Shown here in pieces: positions 7,482-63,200 of a stretch of 64,000 nt of DNA (its first letter is position 1; each line of letters begins with the position of its first letter). The notes beneath the pieces were generated by a model. That model did no database searches and was not told the DNA's origin. It saw only the letters and a program-made list of their open reading frames with translations. Source of the DNA: Zingiber officinale (lineage: Eukaryota > Streptophyta > Magnoliopsida > Zingiberales > Zingiberaceae); the NCBI RefSeq assembly GCF_018446385.1, contig NC_056001.1, positions 6,343,600-6,407,599 on the forward strand. The letters run 5' to 3'. A program made the position numbers and the translations under genes.

Positions 7482-7690
7482 CGCCTCCGATGTTTGCAAT
7501 AACTCCAAACGAAGGGTCGAAGAGTCAAATATCTGCAACGGGACGGAGCGGAGCGGAGCGGAAGAAGCGCGAGATCGCACGGTCTCATCCGGAAGGGGCG
7601 CTTCCCGACCAACCAAATCGAGCTTAGTGTGGCAGACTTATCTCGCTCGAACCGGATCTTGAACCGGAATTAATTGCTGGGTGCGCCGTG

Positions 7691-33007: not shown

Positions 33008-34262
33008 TCAGAACGTGTTTTCGATCTCAAGAGCGTGCGACGACGACGCGTATCCACAGTCGTTGAATGGGAATATTCCGTCATCCGCTAGGAACTCCGA
33101 GATCCTGCCCAGCTCGTCCCAGATGCTATCTCTCATGAAGTCATTCGAGCTCGGGCTCAGGCTCATCTCCGGATTGTTAATATCCGACCTCGCCGGCGCC
33201 GGAAAGATAGATTGGGCGCCTTGGCCGGGGGCGCCGCTCAGGTTCCCGTGGAGGACGCTGTGGTTTTGACGTTGAAGGAGTTGCAGCTCCTTCGCCGAGC
33301 CGCCGGAGGAGGTGCAGCACATGTAGTCGTCGATGGACTCGAAGCAATTGGTGACGATGCTGGACTCCGGCGGCGACTTCGTCGGCGTCGATGTCTTGTA
33401 GCTGTTCGGTTGCTTCTTGTAAGAAGAGCTTCTCTTGAAGATTCTGCAGATCGTCCAAACTTCCTGGAAATAAAACAAAGTGTAAAATTAATTATGAGCC
33501 GCATTTGTTACGAAATTAGAAGCAAATTAAAGCTTGAATTAAACAAGATTTACTGTTATATTGAGAAGGAATTTAAAGTCATTGGAGTTTGTGTATACGC
33601 AAAATTTTCAAACATCTTAATTGCATTCCATAAATGCATGCAACCACGTAAGGAATAATTCAAGTATAAGCTTACCGCTTCTTGGAGGTTGGCAGCGGCC
33701 TTGGAGGAGGCGGAGGCGGTGGCGGTGTCGCCGGCGTCGGACATTCCGCTAGTGGGAAGGCGGAACTCGTGCATCATCCAGTCGGTCTTCGTGCCTTTCC
33801 CAGCCTGGCCGCGGTAGTAAACCAGCGACTTCTTGAGGCCGATGCAGCGGCCGGAGGCGTGGATCGGCCGGTCGATTCCTGTGGCTTTCCAGAAGCCGCA
33901 GCCGGTGACCCGGTTCGGCCGGACGCTGTTCCGGTACTTCCTACCTCTCCGGCAGAAGAAGTACCATTCCTTCTCCCCCGCCGTAATCATAAAATCTGAA
34001 ATTCGATCATCAAATTTAAATTTCGCATGCACACCAGTGTGCAATTATTAACTAATTAACCAATCAATTAAATTATTACTTGGCAATTCCCAAGGCTCGT
34101 GCCTGTAAACGTCCATCTCCTTGATGATCTCGATACTGAGCGGCATCTTCTCCACCTTCGGCGGAGGTAGAAGCCGACGAGCTCTTCGTCCGTCGGGTGG
34201 AAGCGGAATCCAGGGAGCATCACGTCGTCCTCCTCCTCCGCCATCTCAAGCTCTGTTCTCAT
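33008..34262 (-). CDS. NAC transcription factor, JUB1/ANAC042-like, with a one-base frameshift in exon 1
   Basis: Exons on the minus strand: 34262-34080, 33995-33676 and 33463-33008, the standard three-exon NAC plan. The NAC DNA-binding domain reads [20 protein letters not shown] in exon 1, then [55 protein letters not shown] and WMMHEFRLP in exon 2; exon 3 opens [11 protein letters not shown]. GxKKSLVYYxGxAGKGTKT and EVWTxCRIFKR are typical of the JUB1 (ANAC042) clade, which restrains ageing and H2O2 stress. The exons total 959 bases, one short of a whole frame. After FYLRR the bases (near 34158-34163) read out of frame although the next codons would give VEKMP. This is either a real lesion or an assembly error. 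The start may be 34262 or the ATG at 34244. Confidence 0.85.
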
Positions 34263-37923: not shown

Positions 37924-38918
37924 TGTTGGACCCCAAGATTGTTTTGGTATGATCAACAAGTTATAAGTTAGGTCCTGTCGATTTTTAACCTTGTGTCTAA
38001 GTGTGCAGGAGCTTAGGAGCACAGGTAGTTGAGCGGAAGACGCAACTAGCGAGAAGGACGGTACGAGGTGCGTCCGAGGGATGAGGCGTTACGGAAGAAT
38101 ACACCGGCGGACGAGAAGGAAGTGTGCGGTGGTTCCAAGGGACGAGAAGCCGGAGCGGAAGAATGCTCGGGGAACAAGAGACACAGCTAGCGAGAAGGTC
38201 GGCACGGGGTGCGACTGAGGGATGAAGACTGCGGATGAGTACGCTGGCGGATGAGAAGGAAGCACGCGACGATTCCGAGGGACGAGAAGCCGGAGCGGAA
38301 GCTTGCTCGAGAAGACCGGAAGTTGGGTTCGGGTGAGCCCTATTCCGGATGGCAGAGATCACCCAAACAAGCGGAGTCGGAGGAGAAGACCCGAACCGAG
38401 GCAAGTAGCACCGGAGCAGAAGGCCCAGACCCGAAAGTCAATCTGGTTGACTTAGTGGTCCGGGCGCCGGGAACCACCATTCCGGGCGCCCGGAAGAGGA
38501 TTTTTGACCGGATCGTGTCAAGCGCGATCCGTTGCGTTAGGGATAAAGATTTATCTCCCAGGGCGCCCGGAACCCCTTCGGGGCGCCCCGACCAAGACTA
38601 TAAATACAGGTTTGGTCCAGAAGCTTTTGATCAACTCAAGAATTGTAATTCTTCCTTTAGAGTCTAGCTTCTTTCTTTTTGCGCTTTCATTGCTGTAAAA
38701 GACTTTTCCGCCTGAAGGAGATATTCTAGTGCGTTCCATTCCTTGGATTAACAACCTTCCCGGTTATAACCAAGTAAACATCTTGTGCCTGTCATTTTTA
38801 CTTTTGTTTATCACTTTTATAATTTATGCAAGTGTTAGTTTAAGAAAAGTCGAGAAGGGTTGTTTTTATTTTTACAGGCTATTCAACCCCCCTTCTAGCT
38901 AGCCGCAGCAGTCCAACA
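37924..38918 (+). repeat. 5' LTR of the gag-only element
   Basis: Contains two tandem units of about 130 bp (about 38031-38160 and 38161-38310), then palindromes TCCGGGCGCCCGGA (38481-38494) and CGGGGCGCCCCG (38579-38590), then a TATA box TATAAATA (38599-38606). It ends just before the primer site. Confidence 0.9.
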
Positions 38919-38975
38919 AGTGGTATCAGAGCCAAGGCGCTTCAGGAGGACTAACCGCTGATCGAAGCAAAGACG

Positions 38976-40353
38976 ATGGCCGGACCGAACATCTACCCGC
39001 CGAAGTTCGAAGGGGATTTCGTTACCTGGAAAAAATGAATGCAGGTATTTTTTACAACAGAGTTTGAGTTAATTCTAATAATGGAATTTGGTTTTGTAGT
39101 TCCAGAGGGCAAAGAAAAATATCAATAGACGAAAAAGGAGCAGACCGACTACATGACGAACGACAAAGCAGAGTACAATCTGCTAAGCGTTCTCCCGCCA
39201 CAAGAAGTCAACTAGATCGGGAACTATGACTCTGCAAAGGAACTTTGGGAGAAGTTCCTTGAGCTGCACGAAGGAACGTCCGAAGCCAAGCTCGCTAGAC
39301 AGGATCTACTTCGTAATCAGCTCACTAGCCTGCGACTTGGGGAAGACGAGACAGTTGTGCATCTGCACTCAAGAATTAAAGAAATCATAATCGGACTGTC
39401 GAATCTCGGAGAAAAGGTAAGTAACCGAGATTCGCTAAGGTATGCGTTAAATTCTTTTTTGAGAAATTCAAAAATGGGTATCACTAGTAGATGCCGTTTA
39501 TATTTCAAAAGATTTAGAAAAAATTACATTAGAAGAATTATTCTCGACATTTGAAGTGCACGAATCAAGATGTGCATGTTTGAAGGAGCCCAAACACAAT
39601 GTCGCCCTCAAAGCATCGAGAGACGAACCTGAGTCGGAGTCTTCTCACGACGACGAGGAAATGATAATGATGGTAAGACAGTTTAAAAAACTTTGTAAAT
39701 CTAGAACCTCTAACCATCCGCAGGATAAAAAGAAAAGGATGATCCGCTGCTACCACTGCGACGAAGAAGGGCACGTCAAGGACAACTGCCCTAAGCTAAA
39801 GAACAAGGACAAGGATAAAGGTAAGAAGCCTGTCCAAAAGCGCAAGGTCCTAAAGGCGATGTGGGATGATACGTCGTCCGAATCGGAAGTCGAGGTGTTC
39901 TCCGGGCTCGCATTAATGGCGAGTCATCAAGACGACGACTGTGATTCAAGCTCTTCCGAAATGAGCATCGAGAGCATCGATGAAGGGGGAGTTACGTCAG
40001 AAGAAAGCAGCAGTTCAGGGGGAGACACGGATAACGAGATCGACAAGGTAAGTCAGGTTCGATCTCTTCCTCCCGATAAACTCTTTAAATTCGTTAAATT
40101 GTTAACAAAAGATTGCTGCAAATTAAAAATAAAAAATAAAAATTTAAAAGTAATACTAGCTAAATCTTGCCCTCTAGAAGATTTAGACAAATCAAAATTA
40201 GAAAATAAAAAATTGAAATCAGAAAATGTAAATATGAAAATTCAAGTACAAAACTTAAAAAACCATGCATGCTCATCTAATACAAATTTTAGAAGATTTA
40301 ATAATTTAAATTGGTATTTTAGATATCATAAGGGACAAATTAAGAACATTTGA
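38976..40353 (+). other. Gag region of the gag-only element (fossil)
   Basis: Capsid-like region followed by a zinc knuckle of CX2CX4HX4C form near 39750-39790, then an acidic Ser-rich stretch and a Lys/Asn-rich coiled-coil-like tail. It is decayed and not a working gene. Confidence 0.8.
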
Positions 40354-41130
40354 AAAAGATATGTCCCTAAGAAATTTTTAGTCAATCCAGTAGACTGGAA
40401 CCTATATTGGGTTCCAAAGTCTTGTTTGACTTGAACTTGAACTAATTAGATTTAGAGCTTTATGCGAGAAAATTAAACAGTGAGTTTCTTTATGAGGTTT
40501 TGTCTAATGAAGTGGTTGTTGCTCCAATAACCAAGAAGGTCTAGTGTCTCGCCACGACCTGGAAGCCAAAAGATTGAAATAAAATGTTTAATTAACTTTC
40601 TGATAAAACATTAAGGTTGAAATTTAATAATGCTTAAAATTTTTTTTTTAACATTTCTTTCAAAAAAAATTTCTTAGAATTTTCTTTTTGCATAAAACTA
40701 AAATTGCTAAGTTAAAAGTTCATATGAAATTAGAAATTTATACTTAAATCTTTACTTAGAAAAATTTTTCAAAAATATTTTTGTAAAATTTCTTAAGTCA
40801 AATTTTTTTTAAAATTCTCTTACTTAAAGTTTTTTTTAACTTAGAATATTTTTTTTTGCTGAAAATTATTGCAAATTCTCTAACTTAGAATTTATTTAAC
40901 TTAGAATTTTTGTTAAGAAACTTAGAAAAAAAAATTTAACCCTTAGATTTTTTCGGAACCCCATTTTTTTATGTGATCAAAGGAGGAGAAGGAAAAGTAT
41001 AAGTCTAGGGGAGGTAGACTAAACTTTAAATTTTCTATCTTTTTGCACTTTATTGCAAAATTAGTTAGTTTATTTTTTATGTCTATTTACCTATCTTAAC
41101 TTGGGTTGCTCACATTAAAAAGGGGGAGAT
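40354..41130 (+). other. Non-coding interior of the gag-only element
   Basis: Very T-rich and A-rich spacer ending in the polypurine tract. It holds a module at 40495-40556 that also occurs in the solo LTR at 44574-44634. Confidence 0.6.
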
Positions 41131-42062
41131 TGTTGGAACCCCAAAGTTGTTTTGGTATGATCAACAAGTTAAGTTAGGTCACATCGGTTTTTAACCTTGT
41201 GTCTAAGTGTGCAGGAGCTTAGGAGCACATGTAGTCGAGTGGAAGACACAGCTAGTGAGAAGGACGGCACGCGATGCTTCCAAGGGACGAGGTGCTGCGG
41301 AAGAGTACACCGGCGGACGAGAAGGAAGCGTGCGGTGGTTTCGAGAGACGAGAAGCCGAAGCAGAAGAATGCTCGGGGAGCAAGAGACACAGCTAACAAG
41401 AAGGTCGGCACGGGGTGCGACCGAGGGACGAAGACTGCGGACGAGTACGCTAGAGGACGAGAAGGAAGCATGCGATGATTCCGAGGGACGAGAAGTCGAA
41501 GTAGAAGACTGCTCGTTAAGACCGGAAGTTAGGTTTGGGTGAGCTCTATTCCGGATGGCAGAGATCACCCAAGCAAGCGGAGCCGGAGTGGAAGACTCGA
41601 ACTGAGGCGAGCAACACCGGACCGTGAAGTTTGACCAGATAGAGTCAATCTCGATCTGAATGTTGGGGAATAAAGTTTTATCCCCCTTAGGGCGCCCGAA
41701 ACCCTTCCAGGCGCCCCGACCAAGGCTATAAATATAGCCTTGGTCCAGAAGCTTTGAAATCAATTCAGAAATTGTAACAACACTTGTGCGCTTCCACTAT
41801 TTAGATTAGCTTCTCTCTTTCTGTGCCTACACTGCTGTATAAGAGGCTTCTCCGCCTGAAGGAGATAGTAGTGTGATCATCTTCCTTGGATTAACAACCT
41901 CCCTGGTTGTAACCAAGTCAAATCCGGTGCCTCGTTTTTTTTTAATTTTCTATTTATTTTATTATTCTTCAAGTGTTGGTTTGAAAAGTCGAGAAGGATA
42001 TTTTTATTTTTGTTTTTAGGGCTATTCAACCCCCCCTTTCTAGCCGACCCAACGGTCCTACA
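41131..42062 (+). repeat. 3' LTR of the gag-only element
   Basis: Parallel to the 5' LTR, with the tandem units, a shorter palindrome region and TATAAATA at 41727-41734. It lacks a stretch of about 60 bases found in the 5' copy around the TCCGGGCGCCCGGA palindrome. Confidence 0.9.
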
Positions 42063-42486
42063 CTAATTACTACACTTTTTATTCGTTATTATCCTAATAC
42101 TTATTTTGCAAGGTATTTTGGACTAACATTGTTTTGCAGGGCAAAGAGGAGAAAATTACCTTTGAATGAACAGTGTCTGAAGGCGCATTCAACGGAGATG
42201 GAAGGTGCCTTCGTACTGTTTATAGAAGGCGCCTTTCATGGCTATGGAAGGCGCCTTCCGCAGGTTGAATTTTAGCAGAAGTCGTGGATAAACACTGAGC
42301 TGTTCGGGATCGAATTTGCCTCATTGGAGGCGCCTTCCATGCCTTTTTTAAGATTGTCTCGAGAAGGCATGGAAGAACAACTGATATACGAGCTATTATG
42401 CGTTCGTTGAGATTCCGACTGCTCTAAGATCTTGCTGCAACACTGCTACAAAGCTACTGCGCCCGACGACTGCTTCAAGGACTTTA

Positions 42487-44900
42487 TGTTGGAGTGTATA
42501 CTGAAAGCCTAAGCTTTTGTAAACATTTGTTTTGAATAAAGAATCACATTTGGTCAAATTATCTACATTTGTTTGTAGTTGTTCAATTAATTTATATTGT
42601 AGATAACATAGTATGTGGTGTCATATGCAGAAGATGATGTTATCAGTACCTTATAAATTATAAACAGTAGCTCACGACCAAAATAGAAAGGAACAAACCA
42701 TTAGAAGGTCGTAGTGTAATTAGGTATTAGTTTATCTTGACTATATAATTACACTAGTACACTCAGAGTGTATTGAGTAGGACCATTTGAGGTCGTTTCT
42801 TTTATACTGACTTTATAAAGGAACAAAGACCTCAGTTATTATGGAAGTGTGTGCTTTTAATCCTAATATAATAACAAGCACATATATTTGATATTTGTTT
42901 CTTTAATTTATCAATGGGTGAGATTTAGTTCGATGAATCAATAAGCTCGATAAGTTGGGAAATGATATCACTTATAGTGTGTGTTGTTGATTATAGAAGG
43001 AAACTGTGTCCTAGAGATACTAGGTTGATAATGTCCCCAAGAGGAGCTCATAAGGATTGTCATGTTAAACCCTGTAGGTGGACTTAGTCCGACATGACGA
43101 TAAGGTTGAGTGGTACTACTCTTGGACTAAGATATTAATTAAATGAGTTGTCAGTAACTCACTTAATTAGTGGACATTCGATATCTTAAACATAGGGAGA
43201 CTAACACACTCATAATAAGAAGGAGCCCAAAAATGTAATTTGGGATTGGTGCGGTAGTTCAATAATAGTTCTCTAGTGGAATGAATTATTATTGATAAAA
43301 TTAAGTTGTGTGTTTGGGGCGAACACGGGATGCTTAATTTTATCGGGAGACCAAAATCAATTACTCCTCTCGGTCCCTATCGTAGCCTCTTATTTATAGA
43401 GTATTATACCCACCTATACCCACCTTCTATACCCACCTAAAGGGGACCGGCCAAGCTAGCTTGGGAATCAAGCTAGGGCCGGCCTAAGCATGGTTTAGGA
43501 TGGCCGACCCTAGCTTGAACCCAAGCTAGAGGGGGCCGGCCATAATTAAATTAAAAAGAATTTTAATTTTAATTTTTATTATGTAGAAGATATAATTTAT
43601 TAAAGAGAATTAAAATTAAAATATCTCTTTTAAAAAGGATCTACAAAAGATTAAAGAAAGAGATTAGATCTCTTTCCTTATTTGTAGATTGGAGAGATAT
43701 TTTATTTTCTCTTTGAAAATTATTCACATGTTGAAAAATTAAAATTATAGAAATTTCTTTTTATCAACCATAAAGGGATTTTTGAAGAGAAATTTTATTT
43801 TTAAAATTTCCGGAAACAAATTAGGAAGTTTTAATTTGTTGATTGAAACTTGTCTAATTTGCCTCTCTATGATGTGGCCAGCCATTAAGAGTTTAATTGG
43901 GAAATTTTATTTTATTTTTCTCAATTAAATCATGTCAAGGAAATTAAGGAAATTTTATTGTAATTAAATTTCCTAATTTACCAAGGCTATGGAATATAAA
44001 AGAAGGGGTGGGGGTGCCTTCATTGGGGACAACCTCTATTATTTTTCTTCCTCTCTTATTCCTTGGTGTGGCCGGCCAACCTCTCTTCCCCTCTTCTTCT
44101 ATGTGGTGGCCGAACCTTTCTCTTGGCTTGGAGCTCTTGTGGTGGCCGGATACTACTTGGAGAAGAAGAAGAAGAAGGAGAGAAAGTTTGCATCCCTTGG
44201 AGCTTGGTTGGTGTTTTTTTCTTCTTCCTTGGTGAAACTTTCTTGTTTTGGCCGAACCTAGCTAGGAGGAGAAGAAGGTGTTTGGTGGTTTCTCATCTTG
44301 GAAGATCGTTTCCCACACAACGTCCGAGGTTAGAAGAGGAATACGGTAGAAGATCAAGAGGTCTTTCTAGAAGGTATAACTAGTAATTTTCCCTTTCCGC
44401 ATCATATTAGTTATTTATGGAAATAATACCAAATACAAGAGGCTTACGATTCTAGTATTTCGAATATATTTTTCGATGTTGTGTTCTTTTGTTTTTTCTT
44501 TTCCTTGTGATTGAATGTTCCTTTCGGTTAACCTAAAGTTATTTTAGGAAATTAAATATTAGCTTTCCATAAAAGGTTTTGTCTAGTCGGTGGTGGTTGC
44601 TCCCATATCCAAGAGGGCCATGTGCCTCGCCACGTCAGTACTGGGAACCAATTATGGAAATTAATATTTAATGAAATTAATAACTTAATGTGATTTGGAT
44701 CGAACGTGTTAAGTTCCGCAGGAGATCCAAGTCTAAACCTAAAAGAACAAATAGATTAAGTTTTGGATCAAACGTGTTAAGTTCTGCAGGCGATCCAAAA
44801 TTTAATTTAAAAGAACACATGGTAGCTAGGAAAAGGTTCAGACCTTTGTACAAAATTTTTGTACAGTGGAACCTCTAGGTTTTCCGAATAGCAACCAACA
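42487..44900 (+). mobile_element. Large solo LTR (Angela/Tork-like copia) inserted in the SIRE-like 5' LTR
   Basis: It starts TGTTGGAGTGTATACTGAAA and ends CAACCAACA, which are normal LTR ends. The pentamers flanking it, CTTTA and CTTTC, look like a target-site duplication with one change. The 3' LTR of the host element is uninterrupted at the matching place, which shows the insertion directly. At 2.4 kb it is long for a solo LTR. It includes GGCCGGCC-rich stretches near 43445-43545. The missing interior implies recombination between its two LTRs. Confidence 0.8.
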
Positions 44901-45548
44901 CTTTCGATCGCGGCCGGTAGACCGACATCGACACGAGCACTTCCACATCATTCTTTAAGTGCCGGTAATTTTTTTTATAATTAATTACTATAAAAGGACA
45001 TGTGCAGTGTGTTGCACTTTTTCAACTTTCATTATACTCGATTTTCTCTTTCGGAGGTACCAGAAGAGGTTTTTAGTGGATTATCCATTGATAGGTCCAC
45101 AAGACCTGGGTCTTGGAGTAGGAGTCGCCGAAGGCTCCGAACCAAGTAAAACCGTTTATGTTTTTCTTATGTTCTTTATTTTCATTTTCTTTTTTCCGCT
45201 GCTTATACTTTGATTTCAAAATCGAAAAGATAAGTTTTTAAAAAATCACGTGATTCACCCCCACCCCCCCTCTCACGTGCGATCGATCCAATAAGTGGTA
45301 TCAGAGCAGGTTTTGCTTTGAATTGGTGCAACCATGAATCAAGTCGGGGGAATCGTTTTTTGTTTTTTGCATTCTATTTGAATTGGTAAAACTTTACCTA
45401 TTCAGATAATTTTTTTGTTTGGTTTTAATTTGAGATTGGTGCAACACCTCTCAAAATTTTCTACATTTTTAAATATATCTCAAACACTGCTAATCTAAGA
45501 CCAAGTCTTGGTACTTTGTTTTAGTTTTTTTTTTTCTACAGCTGTGAA

Positions 45549-46920
45549 ATGACACAACTTGAAGGGTACAACACCGTTCATCCTCCCCTATTCAACGGTG
45601 ACGACTTCTCATACTGGAAGAAGCGAATGGAGATGTACCTGAAGACCGACTTCGACCAGGGGTTTAGCATCACCAGAGGCTATAAAGCTCCCATCGACAA
45701 CGCTGGAATTCTAGTGGACTCGGAACATTGGAATCCAGAAATGAAGAAAAAAGCTCAGATCGACTTCAAAGCTCTCAACACAATTCAGTGTGAACTAACA
45801 AAAGAAGAGTTGAACCACGTCGGTCCACATGAAAATGCAAAGGAATTGTGGGATAAGCTCATAGAACTACACGAGGGAACCAATGATGCAAATGTAACAA
45901 AAAGAGATTTGTTCTTAAATAAATTATTTAATGTCAAAATGCAGAAAGGTGAGACCGCTGGTCAGCTACACGCGAGGATAAAGGATATCCCCAACATACT
46001 TCACACCATCAACCACCAGATGGAGAATCGCGATCTAATAAGGTATGCTCTAAACATGTTTCCTCGAAATGCACTGTGGACATTCATTGTGGATGCCTAT
46101 AAGATTTTGAGAAACTTGTCAAAGTTAAAATTAGATGAATTATTTTATGAATTAGAACTGCATAAATAGACTAACGCCAAATCCGAGAAAAGTCTTGCTC
46201 TTATTGCAGGATCATCAAAAGACAAGTTTATATCTAAACCGGAACCTGAAGTCAAGTCTGACTCAGACTCAGATGATGAAGAATACCTAGTGAACCTGGT
46301 AAGGAAAATGTTCACAAGGAGAAAGAAGAACTTCACCAACAAGGACTTGCAGAAGATCAACTCCACCTCCAACTCTAATAACAAGAATGTGACCTACTTT
46401 GGATGCAACAAGAAGGGGTACTACAAGACCGACTGTCCGAATCTAAAAAAGAAGAAGGCTCTTAAAGCGACATGGGATGAATCGTCAGGGGAAGATTCAG
46501 ACAGCGAAGAACCAAAGCACTCCAACTACCTCGCACTGAGGGCATACGGACCAGAATCAAAAAGTGAATCAGAAGACGGATCCGAACTCGAATTGAGCCA
46601 TGAGTCCGCACTCGTCTCTGAAGGTTTCGATGAGGTATATTTTAGTTTAAATAAAAATTTCTTTAAAATCATTGCATGCTTAAATAGGAAATTAACTACT
46701 TATGAAAAATCAAATAAGCAATCTAAGTAAAGAAAATAAATCACTTAATGAACAACTAAACTCAACAAATGAACCAATTCAAACTGAAATCCCAACTCAA
46801 GTTGTAAAACTTGAGGAGGATAATTCCAGATTAAAAAATAAAATAATTAAACTAAATGAGTTATTACAAAAATTCACAACTGGATCCAAGTACCTCGATA
46901 TGATACTTGGATCATAAAGA
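45549..46920 (+). other. Gag region of the SIRE-like element (fossil)
   Basis: The capsid part includes FSYWKKRMEMYL and KELWDKLIELHEG, typical of the copia UBN2 gag family, followed by a decayed zinc knuckle and a charged tail with coiled-coil character. Confidence 0.8.
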
Positions 46921-53594: not shown

Positions 53595-53837
53595 TGTTGG
53601 TGTAATTTCCAGTAGGTCAAGGTTGACCTAGTTGACCAAGCGTAAACCTTGGTCATGGTTTCGATGTTTGACAATACAGAAAGACATGTAGACATGGACA
53701 ATGCAGGTGCAGTTGTCCATGCGGAGAGATACTGATCAGGGTCTGATCAGGTTGGATGAAGAAGAGTCAAGTAGGTCAAGGTTGACCGGATACTTGACTG
53801 GGAAGTCCTAACTGGGATGTTAGGCAGTTCGGAAAGA

Positions 53838-54040
53838 CCTGGTGAGTGAAGCCAGGTGAAAATCCTAGTGAGTGAAGCTAGGTGAAAGTGAAAGTCCTGG
53901 TGAGTGAAGCCAGGCAGTTGGAGAAAGTCCTGGTGAGTGAAGCTAGGCAGTTGGGAAAGACCTGGTGAGTGAAGCCAAGTAGGGGAAAGACCTAGTGAGT
54001 GAAGCTAGGCAGTTTGGAAGTCCTGGTGAGTGAAGTCAGG
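53838..54040 (+). repeat. Seven hairpin units CCTGG-TGAGTGAAG-CCAGG and variants
   Basis: Units at 53838, 53864, 53896, 53929, 53961, 53991 and 54022, each 19 bases. The 9-base loop is invariant. Two units have the stem pair G-C, two have A-T at the same position (CCTAG with CTAGG), two have a G-T wobble and one is unpaired at one place. Confidence 0.85.
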
Positions 54041-54089
54041 CAAGGGAAATCCAGATGGGTCAAGGTTGACCAGACATCTGGTGAAAAGT

Positions 54090-54164
54090 CCAAGCAGGGA
54101 GCTTGGCACGGGAAAAGTCCAAGTATGGAGACTTGGCACGGAGAAGACCAAGTTGGAGACTTGG
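54090..54164 (+). repeat. Three hairpin units CCAAGC/GCTTGG and CCAAGT/ACTTGG
   Basis: Units at 54090-54106, 54119-54136 and 54148-54164. The innermost stem pair is C-G in the first and T-A in the other two. Confidence 0.85.
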
Positions 54165-54336
54165 CACGGAAAGTCGGAGAGGGCTCGGTAGCTCGTTCTC
54201 CAGACTGTGGTCAGAGAGGGCTCGGTAGCTCGAAGTCGGAGAGGGCTCGGTAGCTCGTTCTCCGGACTAGGTCAAGAGAGGGCTCGGTAGCTCGTTCTCA
54301 GGACCATTTAGGGTTTAGGGCTGGAGCTCTAAACCT

Positions 54337-54613
54337 GGATCGGTCTGGTGACCGATCCAGCGATACGCCTGAGTATCTGATCGGTCTGGTGACCGATCAG
54401 ATAACAAACAGAAGGGTTCTGTAAGTCATCTGATCGGTCTGGAGACCAATCAGCAGGGAGTCTGATCGGTCTCCACGATCGATCAGAGACGCAGCCACCT
54501 CTCTTGCAGAGAGGTGGGATCGGTCCGGGGACCGATCAGACTGGGGCCTGATCGGTCCCCAGGACCGATCAGAGGTACCCTGGACCGATCAGGCTTCAGC
54601 CTGATCGGTCCAG
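54337..54613 (+). repeat. GATCGGTC/GACCGATC inverted-repeat array with one 14-bp hairpin
   Basis: Clean pairs at 54337-54358 and 54377-54400, several imperfect ones, and a perfect 14-bp stem with 6-base loop at 54580-54613. A TATA box follows 76 bases later. Confidence 0.85.
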
Positions 54614-55318
54614 AACTATCCGTTGGCTCACAACGGCTAGTCTTCTGTCTTCTGTTCTTCGCAGGTGCAGTGCAGGTTGAGTGCAGGTTATAAAAGGAGT
54701 TCAAGGGCTTGTCTCTAGTTTCTTCTTCTTCTTCCTCTCTGTTTCTTCTTGCTTCTGCAAGTTCTTCCTGGTTCCTTCTGCGAGCTTTGCTGAGCTCTCA
54801 CTACCGAAGCTTCGGGTGAGCTTCCTGCTGGTTTTCTAGCTGAGCTTGGATCCGAGAAGTTGCTACTTCATCAGGATTCCAGTCGACAACGAGAAGGCAA
54901 GCAAAGGGTTTTACATTTCGATTGTTCTTGTTTTCTTTCTCTACTGTTGTACTCCTTATTGCTGTTGCAAAGTTATTGTAGCGAGGTTTCTCCACCCAGA
55001 AGGAGTTCATATTAGCCGGTTTTCCGGGGTCTCATCCACCGACGGATCGATAGGCTTCGTCCACCTTACGGACACGCCGAGGAGTAGGAGTTTATCTCCG
55101 AACCTCGTTACATCGCTGCGTGTTGAGGTTTGATCTTCTTGTCTTTGTTTCTTTGTTTTATTTTCCGCTGCGCTAACGTCAACTTGTAGAAAGAAACGAA
55201 GATTTGGGGTCGGCTATTCACACCCCCCCTCTCTAGCCGCGTCCGTCGATCCTAACAAGTGGTATCAGAGCGAGGTCGCTCTTCACCGGATTAACATCCA
55301 AGGGAGCATAAGCTAGAG

Positions 55319-56181
55319 ATGGATCGGCTTGGGGAGGACATCACGATTCCACCCTTCTACGATCGCGACGACTTCACGTATTGGAAGGTAAGAATGAGGT
55401 ATTTTCTTATGTCTAACCTTGAAAATTGGAGTTGTGTTCAATTAGGTTTCAAGCCTCCGATGGACAAGAAAGGAGAAACCCTAGAGAAGAAGAAGTGGAC
55501 TAAGGAACAAGTCCACCAATCCCTAGTCAACGATGAGGTATTGAAAATTTTTGAATTTTCTTTACCTAATGATGTTTTGTGTAGGATAGGTGGATATAAC
55601 GATGCCAAGGAGTTGTGGAACAACTTGGCTAAGTTCCATGAGGGGAACTCCACTTCAAGCCATGAAGAGGAGTCAAGTGAGCCAAGGAGTTCACATCATG
55701 GAGGGATGGATTTAGAAGTTGAGGGTTACTCAACATCTAAAGAAGAAGAGGAGGAGAGTTCCTCTTTAAGTTCGGAGCAAGGAGAAGAAGCTTCTACCTC
55801 CGGAAGGGATGAAAGAGAGAGCTTACATCCCACCTCAACCCTAGGTAACTCAAGCAATTTAAGTTCTAGTAAATTGCATATATTATGCTTTGAGTGTAGG
55901 GAATTTGGACATTACAAGAGTAAATGTCCAAAGAGGGTTAGGAAGACTCCACCGGCGCTAAAGATCAAGGAAGCCGGAGTCCCGATACGCAAGAGCAAGG
56001 AGCACGTGGTGTGCTTCCAATGCAAGCGAAGGGGACATTATCGGAGCCAATGTCCGAGGGGGAGGCAATCTCACAAGGACAAGAGACCAAGCACATCGAT
56101 AGGGGGAGCTAAGGCAAACCCTAAGGTAATCTCTAAGGCACATTATTGCAATACTAGTAAGCTGCATGCTAGTAGTTTGAT
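55319..56181 (+). other. Gag region of the second SIRE-like element (fossil)
   Basis: Capsid region with DFTYWKVRMRYFL and AKELWNNLAKFHEG, an acidic Ser-rich linker and two CX2CX4HX4C knuckles about 50 residues apart. Cut by the gypsy LTR. Confidence 0.8.
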
Positions 56182-56889
56182 TGCTGATCCGGCAGTAAGA
56201 ATGGGGAACCCACTTCCTGAAGGGGATCAACCTGAGCACCGATGAAAGGCTGTGCGGAGGATGGCCGAACCGAGTGGATGGGTAGGTCCGAACGGAGCTA
56301 GAGATAAGCCCATCCATGGGCTCATGTTTCCGACGCCAGGGCAGGAAGACCGAAGGGCCGAGCGGGAGTCCGCTCGGCCGGGGCCAAGGGCCGAGGGGGT
56401 TGTCCGTTCGGCCAAATAGGGGCGAGGGTATAAAGGGTGCCGAGCGGCCTATGCGCTCGGCTCAGGATATGAGATATAAGCAGAAGCATGTCTGAGGATT
56501 AGGCCGTACACAAGATCGCACGATCTTGCCGTCACCTCACGGAGAGGCTGATACAGTAACAGTATGGTCTCATGGGCGTCTCCCTGACAGATCCATATTC
56601 AGACATGGCCCTTCTGACAGACCCACACCTGGGCATGGTCAAAGGCAGGTGGTTGCTTTGATTGGCACGCCCAGGCTTCTCTGAGAGATCTATATAAGGC
56701 TTCCATTTCTCCACTGGAGGTATGAAAAAATCTTCATCTTGAAGCCACCTTTTTGTTATTCCTCGCCTGACTTGAGGGGCCGTCGCCGGACACCCTCCCG
56801 GCTCGGTTTTGTTGCAGTTCACCGAGCATTCGAGGATCTAGCAGAAGCGCCACGTGCCCAGCTCATCAACTAACCGATCGGACAGATCA
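56182..56889 (+). repeat. 5' LTR of the Tat-type element
   Basis: Starts TGCTGATCCGGCAG and ends near GATCA before the primer site. An inverted repeat GGCCGAGCGG/CCGCTCGGCC (56356-56379) lies upstream of TATAAAG (56429-56435), and another, GCCGAGCG/CGCTCGGC (56439-56461), just after it. Confidence 0.75.
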
Positions 56890-56999
56890 AATTGGCGCCG
56901 TCTGGGAACGCTCCCGCATCCGATCGAAACAATGGACGAGGTCGGACGACAACACACGGTGACGCTTTCAGGAAGAACTCGAGATAAGGGCCGCCAAAA

Positions 57000-59900
57000 T
57001 TGTTGAACAAAAACAGAAAGCAACGGCCGAAAGCAACATCAGCATCATGGGGCCGAGCGGAAGCACCTCCACCCACCGTCGCATTCCACCGGCCTTATTT
57101 TGAAGCCGGACCAGCTCGGAGAGATAGAGACTCTTCTTCAGACGAGATGCCAAGGCGAGATGACAGAAAAGGGAAAGCTCACTGGGCGGATTCATCTCCC
57201 GAGCGGACCAATCGCCAATTCTCGGAGACTATTCTACGAGACCCTCTACCCAAGCACTACGTGCCTCCGACGATAGGCGAGTACAATGGAACAACGGATC
57301 CGGATGACCATCTGGGTAAGTTTGACAACACAGCCACGCTCCATCAATACACCGATGGAGTGAAATGCCGCGTCTTTCTTACCACTCTCTCTGGATCCGC
57401 TCAACGGTGGTTCCGGAGGTTGCCGGACGGATCCATCACGAGCTTCAAATTCAACGACCTTCCTCCACCACTTCGCCAGAGTCGGCGGTATCAAAAGACA
57501 AGTGTCACCTTGTTCGCCATCAAGCAAGAGCCGAGAGAATCGCTTCGAGCTTACAGCGATTCAACCAAGTGGCGATGGACATCCCAACGGCCACTTCGAA
57601 GACGATGATGAACGCCTTCACGCAAGGCCTTGCGGATGGGGACTTCTTCCGGTCGCTCATCCGAAAGCCGCCCCGAGATTATGATCACATGCTACATCGA
57701 GCCAACGAATATATAAATGTGGAAGAAGCGCAAGCCGCTCGGAAAAAGGAAGCTCCAGCCGAGCGGGCATCTACTCATGCCGAGCTCAGCAACCCCCTAG
57801 AGGGCCGAGGGCCGATGCAATCCGATCCCCCCATGCCAGATCTCACGTACAAGAGGTAGCTGCCGCTCGGCCCAAGCCAAAGAAGAGGTGGACCCCTATG
57901 TTCTGCACCCTCCATCAGACGGATACGCACAACACGAGGGATTGCCGAAGCCTTCCCTTTGTATCCAATCCTGTTCCCAGGAAAGCCGAACGACGATTTC
58001 CTCCCATCGACAGGAGACATAGGACCCATGAAACGGACCGAACCCGCACCGAGAGACGACATCAGCAGACACCCGAGCGGCACCGATCTCCAAGGCAGGA
58101 GAATCGCCGGGCGTCCAGAGAACGGTCACGACCGTCCGCACGGGGAGAGGAAAACGGAACAATACTTCCCGAGGCGAGATCCAATCGAGCCAGAAAGGCG
58201 GGCGTCCGGCAGCTGCAGATCCACGCGGTCGGTTGTAGCCAAGAGCGGGCGAGTGGACCGGAAATCACTTTCGGACCCAAGGACTTGGAAGGAGTAGCAG
58301 TGCCACACGACGACGCGCTGCTCATTAAAGCGGTAATAGCAAATTACACCATTCACCGCATATTTGTTGACACAGGGAGCTCGGTCAACATCATATTCAA
58401 GAAGGCGTTCGATCAGCTGTAAATTGATCGTGCCGAGCTGCTGCCCATGACGACCCCGCTCTACGGGTTTACGGGCAACGAAGTTCAGCCGGTCGGACAG
58501 ATCCGGCTGGCCACCTCGCTGGGAGAGGAGCCGCTCAGGAGGACCAGGACAATAAACTTCGTGGTGGTCGACTCTCCATCATCCTACAACGTCATTTTGG
58601 GACGACCGGCGCTCGGTGAATTCCGAGCGGTTGTCTCAACCTTCCACCAGAAGATAAAGTTCCCCGTGGAAGACAAAGTAGGAGAAGTGCGTGGAGATCA
58701 GCTAGCAGCTCGGCGGTGCTATATAGAGATGATCCGAGCGGAAGGCGCCCCGAATCGAGGTAAATGCCATAACCGAGAAACCTCCCGCTTTAATTTATGA
58801 TGAAAAGGAGGAAGTTCAGATCCATCCGACCCAACCGGAGGCTACGACATTTATCGCCTCGGATCCGGAGGAAGAGCGAAGGAGAAACGATCCAATGCCT
58901 CAAAGAAAATCATGATGTCTTTGTCTCGTCAACACATGAGTTGCCCGGAATTTCGCCGAGCTCCGCGCACAGCATGAGTTGCATGTCCGACCGGACGCCA
59001 GAGCAGAAAGGACTTCAGCGTCGAACAAAATGCCATCATCCGAGCGAAGTAGAACTTCAAGGCCGCCACATACGCGAGGTGCGTTCCCGTGCTGACCAAC
59101 GTAGTATTGGTCTCCAAGCCGGGCGGCAAGTGGAGGGTCCGCATCGACTTTCGAGACCTAAACAAAGCATGCCCCAGGACTTTTATCCTCTGCCTGGATA
59201 GATCAACCGGTGGACTCTACGGCGGCTGCGAATTAATTTGCATGCTTGACGCCTACCAAGGATATCATCAAGTGCCGCTCGCCCGGAGGATCAAGAAAAG
59301 TAAGCCTCGTAACGGCCGACGGCACATATTGCTACAAAGTGATGCCGTTCGGATTGAAGAATGCCGGGGCCACCTATCAACGCTTGATGAACAAGGTGTT
59401 CAAGGAGCAAATCGGGAATCGGAAGTTTATGTGGACGACATTCTTATCAAACCGTCCGAGCGGCCGACCTTTTCAAGGATATGGAAGAAACCTTCCGAAC
59501 ACTGCGCAAATATGGAGTCAAGCTAAATCCCTAAATGCCTGTTCGGAGCTAAAGGAGGGCGTTTCTTGGGGTATATAGTGACCGAGCGGGAATCAAGCAA
59601 ATCCCAGCAAGGTGGAAGCACTACAAGACATGCCGCCCCAAGAAATACAAGAGAAGTGCAAAGGTCGGATAATTGCTTTATCCAGATTCATCTCCTCAAC
59701 CGATCGGAGCCCGCCATTCTTCAAGATCTCGCCGGCTACTAAGTTCCAGTGGGATGAAGAGTGTGACCGAGCATTTGAAGAGTTGAAGACATATCTAAAT
59801 TCTTTGCCTGTGCTGGCCAAGCCGATCGTGGGTGAGTCGCTGTATATGTATCTGTCGTCAACTGAGCATGCTGTAGGCTCAGCACTTGTGAGGGCGAGCG

Positions 59901-61859
59901 GCGAGGAGCAACCGGTGTATTTTCTAAGCCACATTTTAAAAGACGCTGAATCTCGTTACACTGGGCTCGAGAAGTTGGCCTTAGCTTTGGTTCTAGCCAC
60001 TCGGCGCCTTCGACCGTATTTCTTGGCTCACACCATCATTGTCCGAACGAACAGTCCACTCGGAAGGGTGCTGTTGAATCCAGAAGTGTCCGGACGGCTT
60101 ATCAAGTGGACGACAGAATTAAGTGAATTTGACATCCAATATCAGCCCCGCTCGGCGATTAAAGCCCAATCCTTGGCTGATTTTGTGACCGAAGTGCAAA
60201 GACCAGAGCCGGAGGCTATGTGGAGAATATATGTGGATGGATCCTCCACCCGGCTCGGAAGTGGGATCGGAATATTACTACTCTCACCTCAGGAGGAAAA
60301 AATGCACTTATCCATCCGGCTAGATTACAAAGCGACTAACAATGAAGCCAAGTACGAGGCCCTTATAGCCGGATTGCAGGCCGCTCGGCATGTGGGGGCC
60401 GGTCGGGTGACACTTTATTCGGACTCACTGTTAGCCGCTCAGTAACTCTCCGGCACCTTTGAAATCAACTGTGTTCGGCTTAAGCTCTACGCTGAGGCCT
60501 TTGAAAAACTCAAAGCTACTTTCCGAGAGGTGCTTATTCAGAAGATTCCACGAAGAACCAGGCGGCCGATGAGTTAGCCAAACTCGCAGTTCAATAACGC
60601 CGGTCGCCATTCAGAACCAATTGAAAACGCTGCTGGTGGCGCATGTCGACCGGATGCAAGGCCTCACATTTCCAATAGACTGGAGGACACCTATTATGGA
60701 ATTTCTCCGTTCGGCACCACACCATCCGATGAATATGCAGCCCGGCTCCTCGAAGAAGAGCCGGTCGATTTACACTCATCGGAGATCAGCTTTACAAGAA
60801 AGCTTTCTCGCGCCCTCGCTGAAATGTGTAAGCTCGGAGGACTCAGCACATCCTCCGTGAAGTACATCAAGGATCATGCGGAGGTCATCCGGAGGACGCG
60901 TTAGCCAAAAAGATCCTCTTAGCCGGATACTTTTGGCCAACTTTACAAACAGATGCCGCCGGTAGTATCTACTTGCCTTTCATGCCGGTATCACAACTTC
61001 TCTCACCGACCGGGGAGGAGATGAAGGCATCAACCATCTCATGTCCGCTCGATCAATGGGAATGGATATTGTGGGTCCGTTCCGATGGCGACCGAGGAAA
61101 TTCTTACTAGTGGCGGTGGATTACTTCCAAGTGGGTGGAGGCCGAGCCGCAAGATTACTGAACAAATGGTTAAAAATTCATCCGGCAACACATCATTTGT
61201 CGGTCATTCCTCGCCGACTAGTGTCCGACAACAGGCGGCAATTCACATGGAAGATGTTAGAGGATTGGTGCAAGAGCTACGGCATTGAGCAACATTTCAC
61301 ATCCGTGGCCTATCCTCGAGCAACGGTCAAGCTGAAGTCGCACCGAATTCTGCGCGCTCGGCTCGACCATTTGGGAGGGAGTTGGCCAGATGAAGTGCCG
61401 AGCGTCCTGTGGGTCATCCGAACGACGCCGAAAGAAGGGACAGGAGTCACCCCGTTCCATTTGGTATATGGCGGTGAGGCTGTCATTCCGGTCGAAGTTG
61501 GAGTTGAGTCAACCCGGATCCAGAGCTACGATGATGACAACGCCGAACGAAGAAACATGGAGCTGGACTTGGTAGAAGAGGAGAGGGCGAAGGCGTCCGT
61601 TCGGCTGATGGCATACCGTCAGCGGATGAAGCAAAACTACAACCGGCGCGTCATTCCCCGATCATTCCAGGTCGGCGATCTTGTTTGGAAGAAGATCAAG
61701 CCGGTCGGTGACGTCGGCAAGCTTGAAGCTCCATGGGCAGGTCCTTTCAAAATCATCGAAAAGCTCCGCTCGGGCGCGTATTATCTGGAGGATGAGGACG
61801 GTCGGCAGCTAGATAGACCGTGGAGTGCGAACCACCTCCAGCCTTACCGGGCGGGGTGA
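57000..61859 (+). other. Gag-pol coding region of the Tat-type element (fossil)
   Basis: Retrotransposon gag domain near 57250-57700 (with KCRVFLTTLSGSAQRWFRRL), aspartic protease with IFVDTGSSVN, reverse transcriptase with KWRVRIDFRDLNKACP, RNase H with IYVDGSS and KATNNEAKYEALIAGL, integrase core and a C-terminal stretch with RSFQVGDLVWKK. Breaks are numerous, so it is inactive. Confidence 0.88.
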
Positions 61860-61967
61860 AAGGTGTATTACTGTAAATCGCCATGTGTACATTTTTCGAC
61901 TGATTACTGAAAGTGCAGAAATGAAAGGTCAAAAGAGCGAAAATAAGGCATTATCATCGAGAAACGA

Positions 61968-62440
61968 AGGCCCCGTGCCGCTCGGCCGGAGGTATATGGG
62001 TCGAGCCAAGCGCTCAAAAATCGGGGGCCCCGAACCGGTCGGACGGAGGTAAATTATCTGAGCCAAAACGCTCGACGAAATAGACCATGAGCCGTTCGGT
62101 CGGGAGTACGTTCTCCGCGCTGGGTGACAGGTGCGCTAAATATAAATGTATATACTTTTTCGTCGCCTATATGCTTGCGATGCAGGAAGCAAAAAGATAA
62201 AAACACATTGAGCATTCTCCGATGAACGGTTCACCGTTCGGCCGTGAGGTTCATATCCGAGCCGGAGCTCGAACTCGAAGACCCTGTGCCGCTCGGCCAG
62301 AATATAAGCAACGTTCGAACTTGAAGACCCCGAGCTGTTCGCCGCTGCATACTAGGGTGGCAAAGAAACCAAAACCTACCGATCGTGGTAATAGCGGAGG
62401 TATGGCTCGAACGAAGGCCTCGAGCCGCTCGCGTGTGTAG
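61968..62440. repeat. Degenerate repeats downstream of pol in the Tat-type element
   Basis: Words such as CCGTGCCGCTCGGCC, GGAGGTA and CGAGCC recur every 60-90 bases with changes. It leads into the more regular array that follows. Confidence 0.5.
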
Positions 62441-62446
62441 TCTCAT

Positions 62447-63200
62447 CGACGCCGACGAGCACCGCTGCTTAAAATCGAGAGCCGCGCCGATCGGCTATAA
62501 TATCCGCGCCGACGAGCATCGTATCGAGAGCGGGCCGGCCTATCATCCGAAGCGGAAAGCCGACGAGCACCGCCGTTAAAATCGAGCCGCGCCGATCGGC
62601 TATAAATATCCGCTACCGACGAGCACCGCCGTTAAAATCGAGAGACGGGCCGGCCTATAAATAATCCGAAGGAAAGCCGACGAGCACCGCTGCAAAAATC
62701 GAGCCGCGCCGATCGCTATAAATATCCGCGCCGACGAGCACCGCTGCGTTAAAATCGAGAGCCGCACCGATCGGCTATAAATATCCGCTCCGACGAGCAC
62801 CGCCGTTAAAAATCGAGACGGGCCGGCGTCTATAATCCGAGCGAAAGCCGACGAGCACCGTCGTAAAATCGAGAGCCGCGCCGATCGGCTATAAATATCC
62901 GCGCCCGACGAGCACCGTTAAAAATCGAGAGCCGCCGATCGGGCTATAAATATCCGCGCCGACGAGCACCGCCGTTAAAATCGAGAGCCGCGCCGATCGG
63001 CTATAAATATCCGCGCCGACGAGCACCGCCATTAAAAATCGAGAGAGGGCCTGAGCCGCTCATGAAGCGGAAAGCCGACGAGCACCGTCGTTAAAAATCG
63101 AGAGACGGGCCGGCGTCTATAAATAATCCGAGCGGAAAGCCGACGAGCACCGTCGTGAAAAGTCGAGAGTCGCGCTGATCGGCCATAAATATACCAAGTG
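62447..63200. repeat. Thirteen-unit tandem array with palindrome and TATA-like motif
   Basis: Each unit of about 50-65 bases starts GCCGACGAGCACCG and continues AAAATCGAGA. Type A units go on GCCGATCGGCTATAAATA and TCCGC; type B units go on GGGCCGGCCTATAAATAATC or similar and end GCGGAAA. The order is A B A B A A B A A A B B A. Eight units have an intact TATAAATA. Confidence 0.85.

What the first reader, a model, noticed from the sequence alone, without database searches (positions are those of the whole stretch)
53838..54164. Hairpin repeats with compensating stem changes in an LTR
Seven 19-base units share the loop TGAGTGAAG. The stem is CCTGG/CCAGG in units 1 and 3 and CCTAG/CTAGG in units 2 and 6, so both partners changed together. 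Two more units keep pairing through G-T wobble. A second family next to it does the same: CCAAGC/GCTTGG against CCAAGT/ACTTGG. Paired change in two unrelated repeat families points to selection on a folded strand, as RNA or as a DNA cruciform. Repeat homogenisation between two unit types could also give this pattern but does not explain why both halves always agree. Each loop also contains GGTGAGT, a strong splice-donor match, which a hairpin could hide.
Basis: partly seen in the sequence, partly recalled or inferred. Interest (0 to 1): 0.72.

Follow-up and report, generated by a model that had tools for sequence, protein, structure and literature searches.

The report
Self-pairing DNA modules in plant retrotransposon
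A very abundant plant jumping gene is packed with short perfect hairpins whose two halves change together; hairpin repeats in this kind of element were known, but here the arms change while the cores stay, and the cause may be copying of one arm from the other rather than selection on a folded RNA.

Summary
Largely confirmed. The seven units (53838-54040) and the second family lie in the U3 of the 5' LTR of a Sirevirus-type copia element, apparently without pol (LTR 53595-55257; target duplication CATCT). Genome-wide, 210,108 of 222,737 scored units have agreeing arms, but 4,783 are A.C mismatches and window unit 5 is broken, so "always agree" is wrong. Between the two LTRs of an element, core-anchored arms differ almost always on one side (42 of 43 cells) and are never re-paired, so complementarity is renewed in the replicating lineage. 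Perfect hairpins are about 2.5-9 times too frequent in U3, gag and linker; stems with one G.U are hardly more enriched than stems with one A.C, though single sequences vary. This favours, modestly, templated copying of arms over RNA-fold selection; the mechanism is inferred. Sirevirus LTR palindromes are published; variable arms on fixed cores and hairpin excess in gag were not found in the searches made.

The parts
53595..55257 (+). 5' LTR of a Sirevirus-type, apparently non-autonomous copia element (3' LTR: L009 5455-7199, G000:C16 about 6412954-6414698)
   Evidence: 93.6% identity over 1746 aligned columns; target duplication CATCT on both outer sides, TG..CA ends
53767..53797 (+). core-family hairpin (F3): arms TCAAGTA/TACTTGA around ggtcaaggttgaccgga
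53807..53824 (+). hairpin CCTAAC-tgggat-GTTAGG
54051..54081 (+). core-family hairpin (F3): arms CCAGATG/CATCTGG around ggtcaaggttgaccaga
54171..54299 (+). fourth family, core gggctcggtagctcgt; perfect arms CGGAGA/TCTCCG at 54237-54264 (CAGAGA/TCTCTG in other copies)
54335..54613 (+). GATCGGTC..GACCGATC palindromes, like the published Sirevirus repeated motif (CGG-CCG signature)
   Evidence: compared with PMC2829016 section 9
54689..54697 (+). TATA box TATAAAAGG
55223..55229 (+). poly-C stretch near the LTR end, like the Sirevirus integrase signal
   Evidence: PMC2829016 section 13
55256..55271 (+). LTR end CA / AGTGG / primer-binding site TATCAGAGC
   Evidence: PMC2829016 section 12
55319..56245 (+). 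gag-like open frame with CCHC knuckles, itself enriched in perfect hairpins; its last codons probably read into the Ty3 insert, since other copies stop aligning at about 56184

Best explanation
The feature is the palindrome-rich U3 (cis-region) of a Sirevirus-type LTR retrotransposon in which no pol was found. It is built from hairpin modules in which a core is kept (TGAGTGAAG; GGTCAA..TGACCGGA; GGGCTCGGTAGCTCGT) and the flanking arms differ between modules but mostly remain perfect reverse complements. Shown: the arms differ together between modules; differences between the two LTRs of one element are almost always one-sided, so resident copies lose complementarity; excess perfect hairpins are found in U3, gag and linker. 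Inferred: the arms agree mainly because one is copied from the other during the element's replication, by fold-back template switching of nascent cDNA at short inverted repeats, while selection keeps the cores, probably as cis-regulatory sites. A mutation in one arm is thus written into the other, and stems drift as units.
For: Core-anchored family F3: 384 units in 114 loci, 11 distinct perfect 7-bp stems, nine of them in 3 or more loci; Watson-Crick 91-98% at positions 1-7 and 17% at position 8 (316 units); whole right arms dealt at random give 0.727 paired (maximum of 5000: 0.844) against 0.952; 142 cells changed on both sides against 48.3 +/- 5.2 shuffled, slid controls 15-37% paired; the nine stems are about 12 paired replacements apart by minimum spanning tree. 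LTR pairs, F1 and F3: 0 of 43 differing cells re-paired. Perfect stems of 7 or more: 91 observed against 17.7 expected in 8 gag and interior sequences, 43 against 5.3 in 5 U3 sequences; with one G.U 1.9x and 1.5x; with one A.C 1.6x and 1.4x; host 1.4, 1.1, 1.1. E. coli 16S+23S rRNA, stems of 7 or more: perfect 1.4x (z 0.7), G.U 1.65x, A.C 0.92x. In the gag/interior set the enrichment is about 10-fold at loops of 3-9 nt and 1.75-fold at 101-200. gag ORF: 14 hairpins against 5.2 under synonymous-codon shuffles, 0 of 200. Template switching as maker and keeper of hairpins is published for RNA genes (PMC8794818; abstract and passages).
Against: No excess of templated insertions in U5: 5 of 139 rows against 5.3 expected; gag 2 of 4 against 0.5, too few. 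No loop found inverted: 725 forward, 6 inverted, all six in L024, which holds both orientations. Two Ty3 open frames, also made by reverse transcription, show no excess, and a second copia gag frame (45549-46166) no clear one (4 against 2.3; 38 of 200); the whole Ty3 insert has 1.6x to 2.5x. The loop-length decline is not smooth: 1 against 2.6 at loops of 10-14 nt. G.U against A.C differs between sequences: L009 interior 2.46x against 1.80x and L023 2.63x against 1.05x, but L036 0.67x against 2.00x and window U3 0.62x against 1.36x. In F1, pairs identical in both LTRs have G.U 12, A.C 2, as RNA selection would predict, although C>T also exceeds G>A in U5. In one search (all perfect hairpins, both directions) 7 of 166 changed cells between presumed LTR partners were re-paired. 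On the F3 alignment two of the five shuffle measures, those least sensitive to relatedness, do not exceed shuffles (435 and 189 of 500).
Confidence: 0.4

Rival explanations
1. Selection on a folded RNA: the U3 hairpins lie in the 3' part of the genomic transcript (and the gag hairpins in its body) and are kept for packaging, stability, 3'-end formation or compaction.
For: Covariation in F3; folding z about -3; gag hairpins beyond synonymous shuffles; F1 pairs identical in both LTRs G.U 12 against A.C 2; genome-wide variants of CCTGG/CCAGG that keep a wobble 26,597 against 13,649 that give a mismatch; G.U above A.C in some single sequences (L009 interior, L023).
Against: Pooled, perfect stems enriched 5-8x while stems with one G.U are only 1.5-1.9x and with one A.C 1.4-1.6x; rRNA has no excess of perfect stems (1.1-1.4x) and favours G.U at stems of 7 or more, though at 5 and 6 its three classes are alike (1.1-1.25x). 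F3 pairs identical in both LTRs: G.U 4, A.C 3, other 6. The wobble excess partly mirrors a strand asymmetry in U5: C>T 4.2%, G>A 2.8%. Differences between LTR partners: 52 G.U, 48 A.C.
Confidence: 0.27
2. Selection on DNA palindromes: dimeric transcription-factor sites or cruciforms in a cis-regulatory region, as proposed for Sirevirus repeated motifs.
For: Position upstream of a TATA box, as in known Sireviruses; perfect Watson-Crick palindromes without clear strand preference; the F3 core holds two inverted TTGACC, the W-box of WRKY factors (recalled).
Against: The arms, not the cores, vary, which a sequence-specific factor would not allow; the gag frame is also enriched.
Confidence: 0.2
3. 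Plain amplification of a few ancestral units: two unit types CCTGG/CCAGG and CCTAG/CTAGG were copied wholesale.
For: F1 alone: two types make 465 of 725 units, and distinct combinations hardly exceed chance.
Against: F3 has 11 perfect stems around one core, nine of them in 3 to 52 loci each; F1 itself has 5 perfect stems.
Confidence: 0.1

Closest known systems
Sirevirus LTR repeated motifs (RM), Bousios et al. 2010 (PMC2829016; abstract and passages, sections 9, 11-13 and 19 read)
   Same: High-copy palindromes in a long copia LTR, upstream of a TATA box, with CGG-CCG cores such as CGGTC..GACCG, and extra copies in the linker; the same PPT, attachment site, PBS and poly-C motifs.
   Different: Besides the CGG-CCG motif this LTR has at least three other hairpin families with fixed cores and changing arms. 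The 2010 paper lists one motif per element (66.5-100% identity among copies) and reports no arm covariation in what I read; its linker copies go with an env gene, which was not recognised here.
Maize Sirevirus palindrome hot spot (Bousios et al. 2016, Genome Res 26:226; not held; known through PMC10760457 and PMC5311732, passages)
   Same: A hairpin-forming, fast-evolving palindrome region in copia LTRs, linked there to small RNAs.
   Different: The maize motif is CACCGGACNNNGTCCGGTG; the 2023 paper puts structured regions mainly in the LTRs of copia elements, whereas here gag and linker are also enriched. Small RNAs were not examined here.
Template-switch making and keeping of RNA hairpins (Monttinen and Loytynoja 2022, PMC8794818; abstract and passages)
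   Same: A mutational process that writes one arm from the other and gives instantaneous compensatory change.
   Different: Described for RNA genes and DNA replication; here it is proposed for a retrotransposon's own replication and is not shown directly.
Large retrotransposon derivatives (LARD)-like non-autonomous LTR elements (recalled; one search lists three papers that hold the terms, none read)
   Same: Abundant element with LTRs and no pol found.
   Different: This one keeps a gag-like frame.

Membership tests
Sirevirus (copia genus) | PPT octamer AGGGGGAG 10 bp upstream of the 3' LTR, several copies in the linker | tested here: met
   six octamers at L009 4921-5445, the last followed by AT and the LTR
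Sirevirus (copia genus) | AT/TG attachment site | tested here: met
   GGGGGAGAT|TGTTGG at the 3' LTR
Sirevirus (copia genus) | LTR/PBS junction CA/ATTGG (or AGTGG)/TATCAGAGC | tested here: met
   CA/AGTGG/TATCAGAGC at 55256-55271; the definition is in PMC2829016 section 12
Sirevirus (copia genus) | Inverted repeat around the PPT/3' LTR junction | tested here: met
   15-nt arm ending 4 nt upstream of the PPT, partner at LTR base 69; shorter and further in than the published averages (28 bp, 28 bp)
Sirevirus (copia genus) | Palindromic repeated motif with CGG-CCG signature upstream of a TATA box | tested here: met
   54335-54613 and TATA at 54689
Sirevirus (copia genus) | Poly-C integrase signal near the LTR end | tested here: met
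   CCCCCCC at 55223, 28 bp before the LTR end; compared by eye only
Sirevirus (copia genus) | Reverse transcriptase of the Sirevirus clade | not testable with these tools
   Pfam gave only zf-CCHC models for the gag frame and nothing for the 181-aa frame at L009 3053-3595; shorter interior frames were not scanned; an autonomous partner was not fetched
Conserved RNA secondary structure | Covariation above column shuffles | tested here: met
   F3: 0 of 500 on three of five measures, the other two not exceeded (435 and 189 of 500); F1 weak: 13, 1 and 2 of 500, others 214 and 102
Conserved RNA secondary structure | G.U pairs tolerated above A.C mismatches on the transcript strand | tested here: inconclusive
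   not clear pooled, mixed by sequence, absent in F3; present in F1 but confounded by strand asymmetry
Conserved RNA secondary structure | Match to a described RNA family | tested here: not met
   0 Rfam matches in the window at gathering score

The most novel reading that the evidence does not exclude
The element's own replication writes palindromes: fold-back copying by reverse transcriptase makes and repairs short perfect hairpins throughout the element, coding gag included, so that compensatory change, usually read as proof of a functional RNA fold, is here largely a mutational product.
Probability: 0.33. Interest if true: 0.8.

Novelty: new variant of a known kind. Interest (0 to 1): 0.55.

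Why it matters
Covariation is the standard evidence for functional RNA structure. This genome offers a natural test, with more than 200,000 exact F1 units and 3,445 exact copies of the LTR/PBS junction, in which paired arm changes can be separated into those made while the element replicated and those made after insertion. If copying rather than selection makes the arms agree, covariation tests on retroelements and other hairpin-rich sequences need a new null model. If selection makes them agree, these elements carry a dense structure through gag, linker and U3 whose function is open.

Tried and rejected
Wobble-versus-mismatch counting genome-wide looked like support for an RNA fold until the U5 control showed a strand asymmetry (64 of 96 sequences matched the U5 query, 58 were long enough and used); kept as inconclusive. 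CHG-methylation decay (CCWGG sites; idea from recall) could explain single-arm changes such as unit 5 but not the paired ones; no methylation data were seen. Templated insertions were sought and not found in excess (rows sharing one insertion were counted apart). Hairpins around PPT octamers looked regular in L009 (GGTCAA-GGGGGAG-TTGACC, AGTCAA-GGGGGAG-TTGACT) but the commonest PPT contexts in the loci do not pair, so this is not claimed. The U3 extraction kept only 16 of 96 sequences because of strict end motifs, and the TATA-based split kept 1 of 30; distances from the PBS were used instead. Covariation of gag hairpins is mixed: with the window as reference 20 re-paired cells against 68 G.U, 69 A.C and 106 other single changes. 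Rfam gave nothing. Papers on ginger-family Sireviruses: one search listed none and one (listing only).

Limits: hairpin null models except one search are first-order Markov resamples; gag copies in one group are related, so their z-scores are not independent, and three of the eight gag and interior sequences are of one group. The F2 search pattern contains part of the arms, so F2 is not core-anchored and is left out of the 43 cells. Only the window's LTR pair was checked for a target duplication; the other 16 pairs are presumed from orientation, distance and 88-98% identity. Loci dropped as overlapping before the counts: L001, L003, L010, L011, L058, L059. On re-checking the calls the odds of the best reading were lowered slightly and those of the RNA reading raised, because G.U against A.C is mixed between sequences and two measures do not exceed shuffles.

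Full report
What is there. Seven units with loop TGAGTGAAG (family F1) start at 53838, 53864, 53896, 53929, 53961, 53991 and 54022, and three units of a second family (F2) lie at 54090, 54119 and 54148. GGTGAGT is present in five of seven units. The stretch folds better than shuffles as + RNA, - RNA and + DNA (z -3.03, -3.09, -3.07), so folding does not say which strand matters.

The host element. The stretch is in the U3 of an LTR at 53595-55257. The partner LTR starts about 16 kb downstream (L009 5455-7199) at 93.6% identity, and both outer flanks carry CATCT. A Ty3 element sits inside, from about 56185 where other copies stop aligning; it has RNase H domains and a weak integrase match. Junction, PPT, attachment site, poly-C signal, TATA box and CGGTC..GACCG palindromes match the published Sirevirus hallmarks (PMC2829016). 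The interior outside the Ty3 element is only about 3.4 kb (junction in L009 judged by eye); of its frames two were scanned, giving CCHC knuckles for the gag-like frame and nothing for the other, so the element is probably non-autonomous. Its clade was not tested with a reverse transcriptase.

How common. CCTNGTGAGTGAAGCNAGG has 224,629 exact matches in the 3.09-Gb genome, none for the reversed pattern. The two-by-two count at the fourth pair is G-C 110,714, A-T 99,394, G.T 7,846, A.C 4,783: 94.3% of 222,737 agree.

Is it more than two unit types? For F1 alone, hardly. Among 725 units in 114 loci, 465 are of the two main types. Five perfect stems exist (CCTGG, CCTAG, CCAAG, CCCGG, CACAA), but the 25 arm combinations seen in 3 or more loci are 0.872 paired against 0.845 after dealing the right arms at random (maximum of 5000: 0.912), and the count tool gives 75.0% against 72.9% (13 of 500 shuffles as high). 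A third family, F3, goes further. Its core GGTCAA..TGACCGGA is flanked by 7-nt arms. In 384 units there are 11 distinct perfect stems, among them CCAGATG, TCAAGTA, CCAAGTG, CCAAGTA, CTTAGCA, ACCAACA, CCTAGCA and ACCAATA, each in 11 to 52 loci. The 21 arm combinations in 3 or more loci are 0.952 paired against 0.727 (maximum 0.844). On 79 rows, one per distinct arm combination, all seven arm pairs show changes on both sides, 142 cells (both helices) against 48.3 +/- 5.2, pairing 92.9% against 81.0%, and slid structures fall to 15-37%; two further measures, the number of pairs with both-sided change and of pair types, do not exceed shuffles (435 and 189 of 500), probably because the columns are so variable that shuffles reach them too. 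Pairing ends sharply after position 7 (91% to 17%). The inner stem of the core also changes on both sides at one pair (G-C 63, A-U 13 rows). The fourth family shows CGGAGA/TCTCCG and CAGAGA/TCTCTG around one core (16 U3 sequences).

When do arms change together? Seventeen LTR pairs, one of them proved by its target duplication and 16 presumed, separate states shared by both LTRs from later differences. Units with identical arms in both LTRs, taken as the state at insertion, are perfect in 63 of 73 (F1), 45 of 53 (F3) and 23 of 25 (F2, whose search pattern contains part of the arms). Cells that differ between the two LTRs number 30 (F1), 13 (F3) and 2 (F2). In F1 and F3, 42 of these 43 differ on one side and one on both sides without a Watson-Crick pair in either; none is a re-paired double change. 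In a wider count over all perfect hairpins, in both directions, which may include misaligned repeats, 7 of 166 changed cells were re-paired. So resident copies lose complementarity and the replicating lineage restores it.

Where else? Perfect hairpins (stem 6 or more, loop 3-26) are 2.5 to 4.4 times too frequent in the U3, gag, interior and linker sequences of this kind, about twice in U5, 1.0 to 1.3 times in the first 37 kb of the window, and 1.6 times in the Ty3 insert; by kilobase the window's element (53-56 kb) and its 3' part in L009 (3-7 kb) reach z 4.5-7.2. Downstream of the PBS, 16 sequences of the window's gag group show 3.4 times and 15 others, alignable only in part or not at all, 2.5 times the expected number (lowest is L034, z 0.3). 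Direct repeats are raised 1.1 to 2.1 times, as in host DNA (1.2 to 1.6); mirror repeats are 1.8 times in the U3 and 0.5 to 1.3 times in the rest of the element. The gag frame has 14 hairpins against 5.2 under synonymous-codon shuffles (0 of 200), while a PPR gene and two Ty3 frames show no excess and another copia gag frame no clear one.

Selection or copying? Stems of 7 or more without any imperfect pair are enriched 5.1 times (8 gag and interior sequences) and 8.1 times (5 U3 sequences); stems with exactly one G.U 1.9 and 1.5 times; with one A.C 1.6 and 1.4 times; in the Ty3 insert 2.5, 1.4 and 1.0. Single sequences vary, some favouring G.U (L009 interior, L023), some A.C (L036, window U3). 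E. coli 16S and 23S rRNA, the one structured-RNA control, shows 1.4, 1.65 and 0.92 at this length, and about equal values at shorter stems. The excess is about 10 times at loops of 3-9 nt, absent at 10-14 (1 against 2.6), 2 to 3 times from 15 to 100 nt and 1.75 at 101-200 nt in gag and interior. Perfect inverted repeats without clear preference for G.U, mostly local, and also in a coding frame, are what copying one arm from the other would give. Such template switching is published as a maker and keeper of hairpins in RNA genes (PMC8794818). It is not shown here: templated insertions were not in excess, no loop was found inverted outside L024, and two Ty3 frames lack the signal. For an RNA fold speak the F1 state at insertion (G.U 12, A.C 2) and the genome-wide wobble excess (26,597 against 13,649), but U5 has its own asymmetry (C>T 4.2%, G>A 2.8%) and F3 shows no such excess (G.U 4, A.C 3).

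Compared with what is known. Palindromic, hairpin-forming, fast-evolving Sirevirus LTR regions are published, with small-RNA links in maize (PMC2829016 sections; PMC10760457 and PMC5311732 passages; the 2016 paper itself was not held). I found no report of fixed cores with covarying arms, or of the same excess in gag, in the listings of the searches made, whose library is open-access only and of which four papers were opened.

Verdict. A real feature, a new variant of a known kind; the paired change is genuine, its cause is open, and copying is favoured over an RNA fold at modest confidence.

Noticed in passing
window 55319-56245 and loci L010-L039 downstream of the PBS: The gag-like coding region of the window is rich in perfect short hairpins, beyond synonymous-codon shuffles; sequences in the same position that hardly align to it show an excess too.
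   Followed up: partly
window 38001-46500: Other copia-type pieces (PBS at 38924 and 45299) with 140-bp tandem repeats at 38038 and 41244; perfect inverted repeats are also raised there, about 1.8-fold.
   Followed up: no
window from about 56185 to 63200: A Ty3 element nested in the Sirevirus; a 58/117-bp tandem array at 62450-63192 lies next to its coding part.
   Followed up: no
L009 4710-4803: GATCGGTC..GACCGATC palindromes recur in the linker of the element although no env-like frame was recognised there.
   Followed up: no
L002 near 1056 and L046: A hairpin TCACAA-CGAGTGAAG-TTGTGA upstream of the 3' LTR reuses the F1 loop almost exactly with an unrelated stem.
   Followed up: partly
window 5799-7616 (-) and 33008-34044 (-): A PPR-type gene and a NAC-like gene by the look of their translations (recalled, no family search run); the PPR gene served as a no-excess control.
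   Followed up: no
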